Origin: Debaryomyces hansenii CBS767
Taxonomy: Eukaryota; Ascomycota; Pichiomycetes; Serinales; Debaryomycetaceae
Assembly (NCBI RefSeq): GCF_000006445.2
Contig: NC_006046.2
Coordinates: 806,001 to 870,000, forward strand
Direction of reading: 5' to 3'
Length of the DNA: 64,000 nt
Shown: positions 4,503-15,478 of the stretch, piece after piece
How the letters are laid out: each line of letters begins with the position of its first letter
How positions within the stretch are numbered: position 1 is the stretch's first letter
Translations under genes and position numbers: made by a program
The notes under the pieces: model-generated
Database searches by the model: none
The model's input: the letters and a program-made list of their open reading frames with translations, nothing else
What the model was told of the DNA's origin: nothing

Positions 4503-5813
4503 TTAACTGTAGAAACCAGAACCTAATTGTAACAAAGATTTCGCAACACTGAACGAATTTGGAGTTCCAAAGGTATTTTGGGAATTTCTAATAGGAGATG
4601 AGCTTAAAATATTATTGTTATCTTTTTTGGATACTTTAATTGAGTTACATGTCGATTCTCTCAATGGCCCATCATCATCTTCATCGATGGTTTCGTCAGT
4701 GTTGAGAATGGTTTGATTAACATCTTCTTGCTTAGTATTGGTCAGGGTTCGTGGTTGATTTCTGTTCTGGTTTTGTAAGTAGCCATTTACTAAATTTCTA
4801 GTGGATGATGATTTCTTCATAGGTGTCTTCAATATTTTATTAATTGGAGGCAATGACATTGATTTTAAGGTCACAGGGTTTGTCAGGGATCTCAAGTTAG
4901 AACTCTCCATATTAACCTTGCACATAAGAGGTTTTGGTAACCTGATCATTGATCCATCGGAAGTGACCGTCGTACGTGGTATGATTTCTGAATTTGCTCT
5001 TACTGCGTGTGTTTTGTTTGACTTAGTAACGTCACTTGGAATCAAAGGCACCTTTGATACATCGTGATAATACTGGGAACCCCTTTTGACGGAGAACAAC
5101 CGTAAATTCTGAGTGTTCTTGAAGTTACTGACGTTCTTGTCGTATGCAATGGCAGAAAGAGAAGGCTTCTTTGTGTATTTGTAAGAAGATATCTTTGCAT
5201 GATTGGAAGGATTTTGAACAATCTTTGTTTTGGTTTGCAAGTTCATGTTTGCAGAAGACGAATAGCCGGTCAGCTTAGGGGGCGTAGGTAAATGTGACTT
5301 TCTGTCAACAGGAGGAATAGTGGATTTGGTCAATAAATCAGAAGAGTCGAATGACGTGTTGGTTTGGGTTTGACTTTTGGTAGCGTCTATGTATTCATTA
5401 CCAGACTTGTTATTGTTATTAATGCTGTTTGATTTATGTTGGAGTTTATAGAATGCTAATTGTAGTTTGAGTTTCAACTTGGTGGCTGCAAGACCTGCGG
5501 TGGCATTTGTGCTGCTAGTCACTAATGGTTTGCTTGTTAAACTGGTAGACTTTGGCGGAGTGGACCCAAATCTAAAGTCAGAAAAGCTGACACTCTTGGT
5601 GGCCCGTAATGTCTGTGACTGAACCGGCAACACCTTCTGTCTCTTCAACGAGTCAGAAGGTGTCGAAGGCCCCACAACGTCAACCAATGAAGATGTATAT
5701 GACCGCTTATTTTTCAGACTCAACGGAGAATTGATGTTTAGACGTGAATCTCTAATTGGTGCTAATGCAATTCTGTTGGAGCTTTGGGAAGATGACGCAG
5801 TGAGTGACGACAT
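4503..5813 (-). CDS. NRM1: Whi5/Nrm1-type G1/S transcription repressor
   Basis: This 436-residue, Ser/Asn/Lys-rich, mostly disordered protein contains one short conserved block, KLKLKLQLAFYKLQHKS (about residues 112-128). This is the GTB motif that binds SBF/MBF in Whi5, Nrm1 and Srl3. Several S/T-P sites (for example GPSTPSD, SSSPIRN, FGTPNSF) fit control by cyclin-dependent kinase. In CTG-clade yeasts a single Nrm1/Whi5 protein usually serves this role. The N-terminal RIALAPIRDSRLNIN is also family-like. The ATG at 5813 is the first in frame. Symbol choice between WHI5 and NRM1 is uncertain. Confidence 0.75.
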   Translation of the reverse strand: MSSLTASSSQSSNRIALAPIRDSRLNINSPLSLKNKRSYTSSLVDVVGPSTPSDSLKRQKVLPVQSQTLRATKSVSFSDFRFGSTPPKSTSLTSKPLVTSSTNATAGLAATKLKLKLQLAFYKLQHKSNSINNNNKSGNEYIDATKSQTQTNTSFDSSDLLTKSTIPPVDRKSHLPTPPKLTGYSSSANMNLQTKTKIVQNPSNHAKISSYKYTKKPSLSAIAYDKNVSNFKNTQNLRLFSVKRGSQYYHDVSKVPLIPSDVTKSNKTHAVRANSEIIPRTTVTSDGSMIRLPKPLMCKVNMESSNLRSLTNPVTLKSMSLPPINKILKTPMKKSSSTRNLVNGYLQNQNRNQPRTLTNTKQEDVNQTILNTDETIDEDDDGPLRESTCNSIKVSKKDNNNILSSSPIRNSQNTFGTPNSFSVAKSLLQLGSGFYS

Positions 5814-6866
5814 GTTAGCAGTGTGATAGTAGATCTTAACGTCACTAATGGGTTGAGTCGCTGAAGAAGGTTTGTTTCTGACGAAAGATAAAATGTACCG
5901 AGTTATACCTGAAAATCCTAAACTTGATGTAAAGTATCAAATACTCAGTTCGATCAAAATACAAATACTCGATCGCGTTAACTAAAACTAAACTGTATTT
6001 TTCCAAATACCAAAATACTGCCAAAAAAATATCGCTAGTGGCGTTCGGGTTAGGAAGTTTACTTCTGACGATGTACGTTTTGGGAACCGTTTTGTTAGCA
6101 AATTGGCTGTAATTGTCAATTGGTCTTCTTTTGTGTTTGTGCCCTCCAACCACTTTGCAGGTAATGTTTACAATTTCATGCACACCTAAAAAACAATAAC
6201 ACCAAATATACTATTAATATTCGCATGGCTCGCACCGTTCTCGCAATGCGTCCTGGACTCCTAACGAGACGTGTCGTTTTATTTATGAATTTCTTGTTAT
6301 TACCGTTATATTTACGTCCCGAAACAGTTTGGTAGTAGTATTTATTTGCAAATTGCCTAATTGGGACGAGGTTCCAATGTTTAGTACCGCGACTTATGTA
6401 TAATGAGAACGCGATGAGGAATTCACGCAAGTGGTGGAGCAGCCGATTCGGAAGGGCTGCCACAGACAGGACTTGTCAGGACATGTAAGGAAATGGTATG
6501 GAAGGTACGATAACATAGGAGGTGTAGGGATACGACGAGAATGGGGTAGAGAATGTAAGTGCTTAGAATGTCAGAACGCAGGGAAGGGCAGTGTAGAATG
6601 TAGAATATGACGAAGGTAACGTGGGGAGTAAGAATGAAGAGATGATAGCTGATGCGCCTAGTTATACCGTTCGCCAGAAACAAATAAGGTATAGGGTGAT
6701 AAGCGATCGGTTCGTACATTATATGTTTTAGTGCATCCGATAGGTCACGACCGTGAGAGCGGTGGATGGCACGCTTGGACCGCCGGTGGCGGGAAGAAAT
6801 ATATACAGGATATGATTTGAAAAAACGGTTTTTGTTTTTATGTGATACATTTTTATATATCATAAA
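5814..6866. other. Anomalous intergenic DNA, left part of accessory island
   Basis: This 1,053-bp stretch holds no gene I can support. Three minus-strand frames (5845-6183, 6176-6463, 6423-6863) overlap end to end; they have no recognisable domain, and two share a weak QFANK-centred resemblance. From about 6420 to 6790 the plus strand is purine-rich and clearly richer in G than ordinary spacers nearby. Its origin may be subtelomeric or inserted DNA, now decayed. The TATA-like TTTATATATCAT run just before 6867 would serve the toxin-like frame. Confidence 0.45.
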
Positions 6867-7939
6867 ATGAACTTCAGTCGTTGTACGGTTTTATTTTTGT
6901 TAACTAGTAGTATTACTGCTGAGATATCTGATCACTTAGTAGCCACCACTGATAATGCTATAGTTAAGAGGGATTTCCCATTCTATGATCAGATAGCTAC
7001 AGTCGCTAGTAACGCCAATAAATGGAGATCGACTATTTTCTGGGGGGCCATAACACATACCTGTATCGGGGTAGCTGGATCAGGCGCTCGGGCAGTTATC
7101 TGGTGTGCATGCAATGATGCAAAGGGGCCAGGCGCCAGATCAAGTTGTATTAAAGCTATGGCATCGGCAGCTAAACGGGCAACCTTAGCTGTAGCTATTA
7201 CTTCGGAGGCCACTAACTTGTCAGGGTCAAGCGCTAAGCGTGAGGACGTTGATACTGCTATGGCTGAAATCCTAGTAATAGCAGGCCTATCCATAACTAT
7301 GATTTTAGAGTTATTAACAAGCCAGCAGTTATTAGTGCTCGTTCTGTTGAAGAAGATGGTACAGATGATTATATTTTACAAGATATGTCAGCTAATAATA
7401 CTTACGTCCGAGTCGTTAACAGGAACGGTACTTATGGCTGTTACGTGTTTAATGACTTAGAATCACATATGACGAAGAGAGCTGAAACTTGCGATCAAGA
7501 GCTAAGATGTCAAACTAGTGAAACGCAATTCTTCGGGGCCGTACTCTATTATGGTAGATATGTGTAAAGATTTAAATTTTGATGTTTTAGACGGAGGGGG
7601 TACCTGTTAGACAAAATGGCAGAGTATATGAGTAGCAGTGACGGTTCGAGTTATTTTAAGTTATATACTGGACTAGGTTAGTGGGATATGAGCTGGAGGG
7701 TATACTCTAGAGATATACTTACTGGTGGACAGCATGTGACACAGGTAATTAAGCTATTAACTGGTAAGAAATTATCTGTTTCATATTTTTTTGATGATAT
7801 AATAGATTATGTGAAAATAAATACTGAAAGAGATATTAAGAATGATTTTGATGATAACTATTTTAATGAAATATACGTAATTTTAGAAGATAAAATAAGA
7901 TTAAATAGCTTTACTGAACCACTTGTTGAATATACATAG
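6867..7939 (+). pseudogene. Broken K1-like killer preprotoxin gene
   Basis: An ATG at 6867 opens a frame with a hydrophobic signal peptide (about 18 residues), then a Kex2-type Lys-Arg at residues 34-35, a segment with three Cys and two hydrophobic stretches, and a second Lys-Arg at 124-125. This order, and short matches such as PFYDQI and a following W..TI.WG pattern, resemble the alpha region of the K1-type killer preprotoxin family encoded by totivirus satellite RNAs. The similarity then moves to another frame (open 7268-7564), which has Asn-X-Thr sites, a Lys-Arg at 7475-7480 and new Cys residues. There is one frame change between about 7268 and 7340. After the TAA at 7565, similar sequence flips frames again through 7610, hits a TAG at 7679 and continues to 7939. 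At least two or three frame breaks and one stop make it nonfunctional as a whole. Family call rests on architecture and short matches by eye. Confidence 0.6.
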
Positions 7940-8074
7940 AAATAAACCAATTATCTTTAGGTCTAACTGTTAATTTTTACAACTAGTTAGAGTTCAAGGT
8001 TTGATTTATTTAATGTTATATTAAATGCTTGTATATAGATTTGCAGCTTTTGCTGCTTACCGATATCTTGTCTT

Positions 8075-8123: not shown

Positions 8124-8419
8124 GACACGAAATTTTTGGGGACTCTGCTTGCACCATACCGGTTAGTTCCATTTAGATCTCGCGAACATGCATTTTTCTT
8201 GGGTTTCCAGTGGTCGTACCGATGTCTTGGCTTGCGGCCTGGTTATAGTAAATGCAATTTTTCCCTCATGAAATGTAGAGACCGACGGCTAATTGATACC
8301 ATATATCTCATTCGAAACATTATGTGTAATTAGGGTCTTGTTTGATTGGTTATTCCAAGTTAAGATTATGGCTTGCAGCCTTGCAGCCTTGCACCAGAAC
8401 CCTCCTCTTCAATGTGTAT

Positions 8420-8453
8420 ACACAAGGGACGAATCTACACAAGGGACGAATCT
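8420..8453 (+). repeat. 17-bp perfect tandem duplication
   Basis: ACACAAGGGACGAATCT occurs twice without a gap (8420-8436 and 8437-8453). It lies in noncoding DNA between the toxin-like pseudogene and ATG3. Confidence 0.9.
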
Positions 8454-13398: not shown

Positions 13399-15478
13399 AT
13401 GAGGTATGTATGTGCATTAATTTAATTATGGAAATGTAATATTAATACGTTGTTATAGTGGAAAGTTTGTTAGGGCATCTAAATATCGTCACGTATTTGG
13501 ACAGGCAACTAAAAAAGAGTTATGTTACGAAAACTTGAAGATTACAAAGAATGCCTGGGATTCCAATATTATTGATTCGAATGGGAAATACTTATCCGTT
13601 AACTGGGATTCTTCAGGAGGTGGTGCGTTTGCTGTTATTCCTTTGAGCGAAGTCGGAAAGGCACCAGATACCGTTCCATTATTTAGAGGCCACAAAGGAC
13701 CAGTATTAGATACACAGTTCAATCCATTCAACCAACAACAAATTGTCAGTTGTTCAGATGATGGTAAGATTTGTTTGTGGGAAATCCCCGAAGATTATTC
13801 ATTCCACAAGTACTTAGATGAATCTGATAATATTAAGGATATCACTGAGCCAATCAAGGTTCTTTCGGGCCATACTAGAAAGGTGGGACATGTCGAGTTC
13901 CATCCGTGTGCTGAAAATGTTTTAGCATCTTGCTCTATGGATTATACCGTTAAAATTTGGAATTTAGAAACCGGTAAGGATGAAATTACATTACAACATA
14001 AAGACTTGGTTACTTCGTTAGCATTCAACTATAATGGTTCTTTATTGGCTACTACCTCGAGAGATAAAAAAATAAGAATCTGGGATATTAGATCAGGGAA
14101 GATCTTATCTGAAGGACCAGGTCACACAGGTGCTAAGCCTTCAAGAGTTGTCTGGTTAGGTAATACTGATAGAATTATCACTACCGGTTTTTCCAGATTA
14201 TCTGATCGTCAAGTTGGTATTTGGGATGTGAATAACATTGAAGCAGGTCTGATTGACGGGTTTCTTGTTATTGATGCATCTTCGGGAGTATTGATTCCTG
14301 TTTTCGATGAATCAAATAATATTTTATACTTAGCTGGTAAAGGTGATGGTAATATTCGTTATTATGAATATGACAATGATATTTTACATGAATTATCGCA
14401 ATTCTCGTCTACTGACCCTCAAAGGGGGTTTGCCATTTCACCAAAATTTTCAGTTAATGTAAAGGAGAATGAAGTCCTTAAATCCTTTAAGACTGTTAAT
14501 GACAATTCTATTGAACCGATATCATTTATTGTTCCTAGAAGATCAGAATTGTTTCAACTGGATATTTATCCAGACTGTCCTTCTCAAGACCCAGCTTTAA
14601 CTGCACAAGAATTTTTCGATGGTAAGGAATGTAATGGACCGTTATTAATGAGTATGGAATCATTGTATGAGGGCACTAAACCATCCATCAGAGAATCAGG
14701 CGCTTCGATAAGTGTCTCTTCAGTTAAAGAAGAAGCAGCTGTAGCCAAGAAAGAGGAGAAACAAGCAAAGGAAAAAGAATTAAAAGCGAAGAAGGAATCA
14801 ACAGAAGAGGTTAAACCGGCGGAAAAGACCAAAGATAATAAGGAATTTACTCCTGAATCATCTCAAACCCCAAAGAATGTTGATGAGTTGTTGAAATCAT
14901 CAGATGATGTTAATAATTTGATCAATAAGGTAAATGATGAATCGGATGATGAAGGAAAACAAAAAGGAGAAGAGAAAGATGATGACTGGGAAGAAGTGAA
15001 GAAGCCAGAATCGCCTTTGTCTAAATCTACTGTTGACCTCAAGAAGGAAGAAGCCAAGAAGGAAAATGCCAAGAAGGAAGAAGCTAAGAAGGAAGAAGCT
15101 AAGAAGGAACAAGCTAAGAAGGAAGAAGCTAAGAAGGAAGAAGCTAAGAAGGAAGAAGCTAAGAAGGAACAAGCTAAGAAGGAAGAAGCTAAGAAGGAAG
15201 AAGCTAAGAAGGAAGAAGCTAAGAAGGAAGAAGCTAAGAAGGAAGAAGCCAAGAAGGAAGAAGCCAAGAAGGAAGAATCTACTCCGTCTACTTCCACAGC
15301 AAACACTTCTAAGACTACTACTAGCGGTGGCCCTACATTAAAAGGAACAGTTGAAAAACTTGCTACATTAGTAGAAAAGTTAGAAGCTCAAGTCGTTAAA
15401 TTAACCGACGCAGGTTTAGAAAAAGATGCAAAATTGTCTTCTCTAGAAGAAAAGATTAACGAGTTACTTAAGAAATAG
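13399..15478 (+). CDS. CRN1: Coronin, with a 5' intron
   Basis: Exon 1 is only ATGAG (13399-13403) and exon 2 is 13459-15478, giving 674 residues. The joined start, MSGKFVRASKYRHVFGQ, is the canonical coronin N-terminus. A seven-bladed WD40 propeller fills about residues 1-400. GHKGPVLDTQFNPF, GHTRKVGHVEFHP and FQ.DIYPD are coronin hallmarks. A long charged linker follows, including 16 units of KKEEA type, then a C-terminal coiled coil (about 635-674) for oligomerisation and Arp2/3 binding. Coronin acts at cortical actin patches. Reading only the longest ATG/NTG frame misses the first 27 residues. Confidence 0.93.
13404..13458 (+). other. CRN1: Intron of CRN1
   Basis: A 55-nt intron has donor GTATGT, a weak branch site (TATTAAT) near 13438-13444, and acceptor TTATAG. 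Its removal makes an AGT Ser codon across the junction and restores the conserved coronin start. Confidence 0.88.
15041..15280 (+). repeat. 16-unit 15-bp coding tandem repeat in CRN1
   Basis: Sixteen consecutive units encode KKEEA or close variants (KKENA at unit 2, KKEQA at units 5 and 9, KKEES last). The KKEQA units are four apart, so a 60-bp higher-order copy is visible. The DNA is nearly identical between units, implying recent slippage or unequal exchange. The repeat number is likely polymorphic. Confidence 0.95.

What the first reader, a model, noticed from the sequence alone, without database searches (positions are those of the whole stretch)
6867..7939. Decayed K1-like killer preprotoxin gene in a yeast chromosome
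A signal peptide, three Lys-Arg processing sites spread over two reading frames, glycosylation sites and Cys-rich segments follow the architecture of K1-type toxins, whose relatives are usually carried by totivirus satellite RNAs. Short alpha-like and beta-like matches lie in order, but the frame changes around 7268-7340 and again near 7565-7610, and a TAG interrupts at 7679. This suggests a once-secreted toxin captured in the nuclear genome and now dying. Family identification is by eye.
Basis: partly seen in the sequence, partly recalled or inferred. Interest (0 to 1): 0.9.

Follow-up and report, generated by a model that had tools for sequence, protein, structure and literature searches.

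The report
Dead yeast killer-toxin gene with plasmid tail
A salt-tolerant yeast appears to carry, in the middle of a chromosome, the broken remains of what looks like a K1-type killer-toxin gene, and its last part turns out to be a scrap of what is probably a cytoplasmic DNA plasmid rather than toxin.

Summary
The window is most likely chromosome D of Debaryomyces hansenii CBS767 (inferred). A secreted-precursor-like frame opens at 6867; coding signal moves from frame 0 to frame 2 near 7260-7310 and fades by about 7500; TAG stands at 7679; no consensus intron donor exists. It is probably a pseudogene. Basic sites and cysteines fall near published K1 positions: Kex-site intervals 90/34/46 residues against 105/39/45. 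The dibasic-plus-cysteine pattern appears in 7 of 200,000 shuffles (post hoc). No search returned a killer toxin and no K1 reference was at hand, so K1-type identity rests on layout. None of three relatives seen is an intact precursor. New: 7757-7936 is not toxin. It is 54-62% identical to standalone 120-128-aa proteins, has 20.6% GC, and has decayed copies on contigs 5 and 6 and a distant relative beside a GH18 fragment. It is most likely a nuclear scrap of a cytoplasmic linear plasmid (NUPAV). Both kinds of capture are known; I saw no report of this K1-type locus or fusion.

The parts
6819..6824 (+). GAAAAA motif 48 nt before the ATG, like the 5' end of satellite dsRNAs
   Evidence: present here, in 0 of 27 comparison genes within 60 nt upstream; motif described in PMC7888664; suggestive only
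6867..6920 (+). signal-peptide-like N-terminus (about residues 1-18)
   Evidence: read by eye from the translation; no predictor was run
6867..7460 (+). frame-0 ORF, 197 aa: delta/alpha-like part and start of gamma; residues after about 132-148 are out of the coding frame
6966..6971 (+). Lys-Arg, delta/alpha Kex-type site (residues 34-35)
7104..7148 (+). Cys triad C80-x-C82-x11-C94 of the alpha-like part
   Evidence: K1 has C92, C95, C107
7236..7241 (+). Lys-Arg, alpha/gamma Kex-type site (residues 124-125)
7260..7310 (+). first frame change (coding signal moves from frame 0 to frame 2)
   Evidence: relative P0003 is continuous across this point
7268..7567 (+). frame-2 piece, 99 aa: gamma-like part with two N-glycosylation motifs (7394, 7424), Lys-Arg at 7475-7480, then Cys at 7490 and 7508 (beta-like start)
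7500..7681 (+). scrambled stretch, beta-like by position and by eye only; fragments in frame 0 (7506-7610) and frame 2 (7583-7681), the latter ended by TAG 7679-7681
7682..7735 (+). last residues before the plasmid-type segment; assigned to the toxin remnant by position and composition only
   Evidence: GC falls over about 7740-7800
7757..7936 (+). fragment of a linear-plasmid-type 120-aa gene (NUPAV), in one open frame with the end of the toxin remnant; stop TAG at 7937
   Evidence: 54-62% identity over 76 columns; E 1e-17 to 4e-22 against this stretch and one fetched locus; GC 20.6%
7731..8041 (.). AT-rich island that contains the plasmid-type fragment

Best explanation
Two molecular fossils lie head to tail. 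The first (6867 to about 7735) is the remnant of a gene for a secreted K1-superfamily killer precursor: signal peptide, delta, alpha, glycosylated gamma, and beta, cut by Kex2/Kex1 at basic sites. By analogy with K1 its mature alpha/beta product would have bound the yeast cell wall and made the plasma membrane leak ions, with the uncut precursor giving immunity. It is now broken by at least two frame disruptions and a stop codon, so no full precursor can be made. The second (7757-7936) is a piece of a small gene of unknown function from a cytoplasmic linear DNA plasmid, captured by the nucleus; it abuts and perhaps replaces the 3' end of the toxin gene. Shown: reading frames, disruptions, layout, homology and composition of the tail, and other copies in the genome. 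Inferred: species, K1-type identity, past secretion and killing, origin from a dsRNA satellite or another yeast's chromosome, plasmid origin of the tail, and the order of the two captures.
For: Frame tracking by codon usage. Layout against published K1 positions: Kex intervals 90/34/46 versus 105/39/45, alpha cysteines 45/47/59 versus 48/51/63 residues after the first Kex site, beta cysteines +4/+10 versus +6/+15 (K1 positions from PMC13211469 and PMC6739482). Pattern rare in shuffles and other ORFs. No GTRNGT donor in 6867-7760, where about one is expected by chance. Relatives: P0001 has the same shifted tail, P0002 lacks the window's N-terminus and C82, P0003 mixes stretches of all three frames. 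Tail: 4 of 16 candidates at E 5e-12 to 2e-7, standalone proteins of 120-128 aa. GC 20.6% and GC3 10% against GC3 36 +/- 5% in 27 genes. More copies on contigs 5 and 6, distant ones on 1 and 2, the contig-2 one beside a GH18 fragment at E 3e-16. Published D. hansenii plasmids carry 120- and 122-aa paralogous ORFs and GH18 genes at 73-76% A+T (PMC8472843).
Against: No search returned a killer toxin: Pfam, PDB sequences (none, only chance matches at E 0.08 or worse), 5.8 billion proteins, IMG/VR. The AlphaFold model of the alpha part is unusable (pLDDT 34) and its BFVD search gave 0 of 81 matches at E <= 0.001 (50 of the 81 were shown, none named a killer toxin). Alpha is shorter than in K1, has an extra cysteine (C66) and an internal Lys-Arg; the third Kex-type site is monobasic; the K1 C-terminal cysteine has no counterpart before the junction. 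The locus is mid-chromosome (about 813 kb of 1.61 Mb), unlike most KKT genes. The cysteine and Kex tests were designed after seeing the sequence. That the tail family is a plasmid gene rests on lengths, AT content and the GH18 neighbour, not on a direct match to a plasmid record; the four proteins score weakly on the PCI domain (best E 0.002, below cut-off), taken as chance. The two distant relatives on contigs 1 and 2 score E 7.5e-5 and 8.3e-6 with P0007 but only 0.1 and 0.35 with P0008.
Confidence: 0.7

Rival explanations
1. The 197-aa frame is itself a living gene: a truncated secreted or ER-retained protein (alpha plus the first residues of gamma plus a shifted tail), not a pseudogene.
For: The frame is open over 197 codons, is 99% identical in P0001 (5 member sequences), and P0002 is open to the matching end.
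Against: P0002 differs about as much in the presumed coding part (114 of 133 identical) as in the shifted tail (40 of 49), and lacks C82 and the window's N-terminus. Codon usage turns unfavourable in frame 0 where frame 2 turns favourable. P0003 holds only disordered pieces.
Confidence: 0.12
2. It is a decayed secreted precursor of some other kind (another K1-superfamily branch such as K2, K45 or K74, an SMKT-like toxin, or a non-toxin secreted Kex-processed protein).
For: The layout delta/alpha/gamma/beta is shared across the K1 superfamily; no sequence-level hit singles out K1.
Against: The C-x-C-x11-C triad and the beta cysteines just after the gamma/beta site fit K1 closely; the other branches were not measured in the same way. 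Pfam gave no hit, and PMC13211469 lists Pfam families for SMKT-type proteins; I did not check that this Pfam copy holds them.
Confidence: 0.2
3. A spliced gene whose introns explain the frame changes.
For: Frame changes alone could be introns; one CTAAC lies at 7213.
Against: No GTRNGT and no GTATG in 6867-7760; TAG at 7679 and overlapping open frames at the change point. Non-consensus donors were not scanned.
Confidence: 0.03
4. Toxin part and tail were captured together because the toxin gene rode on the linear plasmid.
For: They are adjacent and share one open frame from 7682 to 7936.
Against: The toxin part has 41% GC (6867-7720) and GC3 30-37%, like nuclear genes, whereas D. hansenii plasmids are 73-76% A+T and the tail is 79% A+T.
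Confidence: 0.07

Closest known systems
KKT genes and pseudogenes (K1-like killer toxins; PMC7888664)
   Same: Chromosomal K1-like precursors, 14 additional pseudogenes among them, sporadic across yeasts, six of the K. africana ones with GAAAAA near the start codon.
   Different: The named KKT species are Saccharomycetaceae and Pichiaceae; this one lies in a presumed CUG-Ser yeast, is mid-chromosomal, and is joined to plasmid-type DNA. Sequence membership was not tested against KKT profiles.
K1 killer toxin of the M1 satellite dsRNA
   Same: Order and spacing of Kex-type sites, alpha cysteine triad, glycosylation motifs in gamma, cysteines at the start of beta (gamma glycosylation from PMC6739482).
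   Different: Shorter alpha, one extra alpha cysteine, no C-terminal beta cysteine found, broken frames, DNA copy.
NUPAVs of Debaryomyces linear plasmids (pDH/pDHL virus-like elements; PMC8472843, PMC4431711)
   Same: AT-rich, degenerate, repeated nuclear pieces of a plasmid-type small gene; a distant relative lies beside a GH18 fragment.
   Different: Here the piece shares an open frame with an unrelated toxin remnant.
Endogenous totivirus-like genes of D. hansenii (PMC2805616)
   Same: L-A-like virus genes are reported in this genome; one coat-like gene was found here.
   Different: Capsid gene in an open frame on contig 2, no link to this locus.

Membership tests
K1 family / KKT | Order delta-alpha-gamma-beta marked by Kex sites at K1-like spacing | tested here: met
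   intervals 90/34/46 against 105/39/45; the sites lie in two frames, the third is monobasic, and one extra Lys-Arg lies inside alpha
K1 family / KKT | Three alpha cysteines at the K1 spacing | tested here: met
   first spacing is 2 instead of 3, and one extra cysteine (C66) is present
K1 family / KKT | Three beta cysteines including one near the C-terminus | tested here: inconclusive
   two near the gamma/beta site (+4, +10); none at the C-terminal place, where the gene is scrambled and runs into plasmid-type DNA
K1 family / KKT | Signal peptide | tested here: inconclusive
   visible hydrophobic N-terminus; no predictor available
K1 family / KKT | Sequence homology to K1/K1L by profile search | not tested
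K1 family / KKT | K1 fold | tested here: inconclusive
   model of the alpha piece has pLDDT 34; BFVD search uninformative
K1 family / KKT | Antifungal activity and immunity | not testable with these tools
   bench assay needed; the gene is broken here
NUPAV (nuclear piece of a linear plasmid) | Homology to a gene carried by linear plasmids | tested here: inconclusive
   clear homology to 4 standalone 120-128-aa proteins; their plasmid origin is inferred from 120/122-aa plasmid ORFs in print and a GH18 neighbour of a distant copy
NUPAV (nuclear piece of a linear plasmid) | Extreme A+T content unlike its surroundings | tested here: met
   GC 20.6%; 0.06% of 6,382 overlapping 180-nt windows are as low
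NUPAV (nuclear piece of a linear plasmid) | Degenerate, often repeated in the genome | tested here: met
   missing residues and a stop inside the family's length; further pieces on contigs 5 and 6

The most novel reading that the evidence does not exclude
The surviving 197-aa frame, signal peptide through alpha plus at most about 23 in-frame residues of gamma, is kept as an immunity remnant. K1 alpha extended by at least 31 residues of gamma is reported to be enough for immunity (PMC6739482, passage seen), so this frame falls somewhat short of that, and P0002 has lost C82, which lies where K1 has C95, a residue needed for immunity. If true, the yeast lost a toxin but kept its antidote, at a locus that also captured a plasmid gene piece.
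Probability: 0.05. Interest if true: 0.8.

Novelty: new member of a known kind. Interest (0 to 1): 0.45.

Why it matters
If the K1-type identity holds, the K1 toxin family reaches the CUG-Ser yeasts, outside the two families named for KKT genes in PMC7888664; the species of the 21 K1-family homologues counted in PMC13211469 were not visible to me. That would widen the range over which these toxins must have moved. The fusion suggests that one chromosomal site can collect debris of two different kinds of cytoplasmic element, and warns that an open frame across such a join can be mistaken for a toxin's own C-terminus.

Tried and rejected
Splicing: no consensus donor and a stop in the frame-2 stretch. 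Second toxin copy in the genome: searches with the whole stretch and with the alpha and gamma pieces found only this locus for alpha and gamma; the extra hits belong to the tail gene. Intact relatives: none; 2 of 240 candidates of 138-437 aa passed E <= 10, P0001 and P0002. Viral contigs: 0 of 21, 0 of 243 and 0 of 44 pattern matches confirmed. AlphaFold of the alpha piece and of the 120-aa protein: pLDDT 34 and 37, useless. Totivirus polymerase family PF02123: nothing in this genome or in any of 14 controls, so uninformative. Repeats of 14 nt or more: no direct repeat flanks the insert; shorter target-site repeats were not sought. A bacterial promoter/terminator scan does not apply to yeast and is not used.

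Full report
Where it is. The window is 806001-870000 of contig 4 (1,606,296 bases) of a genome of 12,181,948 bases in 8 contigs. D. hansenii CBS767 is described as 12.18 Mb in seven chromosomes (PMC9902641, passages seen). CTG is rare in the window's genes (3.2 per thousand codons). The genome carries an L-A coat-like gene; two are reported for this species (PMC2805616, passages). The feature lies mid-chromosome in a 2.9-kb gap between a 436-aa ORF without a Pfam hit (4503-5813, minus) and an Atg3-type gene (PF03987, 8699-9673, plus).

What is in the sequence. Frame 0 is open from the ATG at 6867 to 7460 (197 codons). Frame 2 is open over 7268-7567, 7583-7681 and 7682-7939; frame 0 has a short piece at 7506-7610. 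A codon-usage score trained on 27 genes of the window favours frame 0 over about 6900-7260, though it dips slightly below zero over 6990-7139. It favours frame 2 for windows starting 7260-7350, is near zero in frame 2 to about 7559, favours no frame convincingly over 7500-7680, and favours frame 2 again from about 7710. The frame-2 codons 7310-7457 score 0.17 bits each, like real genes (mean 0.19, s.d. 0.155); the whole frame-0 piece 6867-7307 scores only 0.04. No GTRNGT donor exists in 6867-7760, where about one would be expected by chance. This is the pattern of a broken coding sequence.

Does it look like K1? Published K1 positions are Kex sites after R44, R149, R188 and R233, and cysteines C92, C95, C107, C239, C248 and C312 (PMC13211469, sections and passages; PMC6739482, passages). 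Counted in residue equivalents from 6867, the window has basic sites at 35, 125, about 159 (Ala-Arg, monobasic) and about 205, and cysteines at 80, 82 and 94, then at about 209 and 215. Intervals are 90/34/46 against 105/39/45. The alpha triad sits 45, 47 and 59 residues after the first site against 48, 51 and 63. Two N-glycosylation motifs fall in the gamma-like part. The pattern of a dibasic site at residue 28-50 plus the triad appears in 7 of 200,000 shuffles of the first 148 residues, and in 1 of 97 ORFs of at least 100 aa, this one. Both tests were designed after seeing the sequence. Against it: residue 104 ends a further Lys-Arg, cysteine 66 is extra, alpha is shorter, and no C-terminal beta cysteine is found. 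The label beta for the scrambled part rests on order and on by-eye likeness. No search returned a killer toxin: Pfam, NCBIfam, PDB, the large protein set (3 of 366 candidates, 2 of 240, all unnamed relatives), and IMG/VR (0 of 21 and 0 of 44 pattern matches). The alpha model is unusable. K1-type identity is therefore probable, not shown.

Relatives. P0001 is 99% identical and has the same shifted tail. P0002 is 84-85% identical, lacks the window's N-terminus and one triad cysteine, and differs about as much before the frame change (114 of 133 identical) as after it (40 of 49). P0003, on a 199-kb contig, is made of stretches matching all three window frames but is continuous across the first frame change. 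None is an intact precursor. Their DNA was not seen and they carry no organism names.

The tail is something else. A search with the 85-aa piece 7682-7936 (X-padded, so that proteins of about 113-358 aa counted; shorter ones could not appear) found 4 of 16 candidates with E 5e-12 to 2e-7, standalone proteins of 120-128 aa. They align over 7757-7936 with 54-62% identity. That stretch has 20.6% GC; 0.06% of 6,382 overlapping windows of its size are as low. Its third-position GC is 10% against 36 +/- 5% in the 27 genes. The same gene occurs decayed on contig 6 (703155-703453) and as scraps on contig 5 (505824-505909, and L008 4138-4206) about 1.3 kb from copia-type reverse transcriptase sequence, the latter named by eye. 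Distant relatives with open frames of 118 and 120 codons and 23% and 18% GC lie on contigs 1 and 2; they score E 7.5e-5 and 8.3e-6 with P0007 but only 0.1 and 0.35 with P0008. The contig-2 one is next to a GH18 fragment (E 3e-16). In print, D. hansenii non-autonomous linear plasmids carry GH18 genes or fragments and paralogous 120-aa and 122-aa ORFs, with 73-76% A+T; another 119-aa plasmid protein is said to be homologous to unknown CBS767 proteins (PMC8472843, section 2.2 read). P0008 has 120 aa and P0007 122 aa. I conclude that 7757-7936 is most likely a nuclear scrap of such a plasmid (a NUPAV). Nuclear capture of D. hansenii plasmid genes is known (PMC4431711, passages, citing papers I did not see).

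How it most likely worked and ended. By analogy with K1, the precursor would have been secreted, glycosylated in gamma, cut by Kex2/Kex1, and released as an alpha/beta toxin that makes membranes leak. Here the gene suffered frame disruptions and a stop, and a plasmid-type piece stands where its 3' end might be expected. Which came first cannot be told. For a satellite-dsRNA origin there is little beyond a GAAAAA 48 nt upstream of the ATG (0 of 27 genes show it).

Novelty. KKT genes and 14 KKT pseudogenes are known from six species of other families (PMC7888664, sections read), and NUPAVs are known. Searches of the open paper library (listings, not all papers opened) showed no listing that reports a K1-like gene in Debaryomyces. 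Frank and Wolfe 2009 was not held, and supplementary tables, including Table S2 of PMC13211469, were not open to me, so prior notice cannot be excluded.

Noticed in passing
G000 contig 6, 703155-703453 (L024, minus strand): A nearly full-length but broken copy of the 120-aa linear-plasmid-type gene, 61-68% identical over its first half.
   Followed up: partly
L025 3331-3693 (-) and 3773-4246 (+), contig 2: A distant relative of the plasmid-type gene in an open frame of 120 codons (18% GC), divergently beside a GH18 chitinase fragment.
   Followed up: partly
L026 3814-4170 (-), contig 1: A distant relative in an open frame of 118 codons (23% GC) in the nuclear genome.
   Followed up: partly
L008 3825-4206 and 5505-7982, contig 5: Two scraps of the plasmid-type gene in opposite orientation, followed by copia-type reverse transcriptase sequence recognised by eye.
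   Followed up: partly
G000 contig 2, 1030329-1031636 (L007): An L-A virus coat-like gene (PF09220, E 1e-270) in an open frame of 682 codons; the polymerase family search rang nowhere, controls included.
   Followed up: no
window 13937-15478: WD40 protein (coronin-like, name recalled) with a long Lys/Glu/Ala repeat tract toward its C-terminus.
   Followed up: no
window 8419-8452: Perfect tandem duplication of a 17-nt unit upstream of the Atg3-type gene.
   Followed up: no
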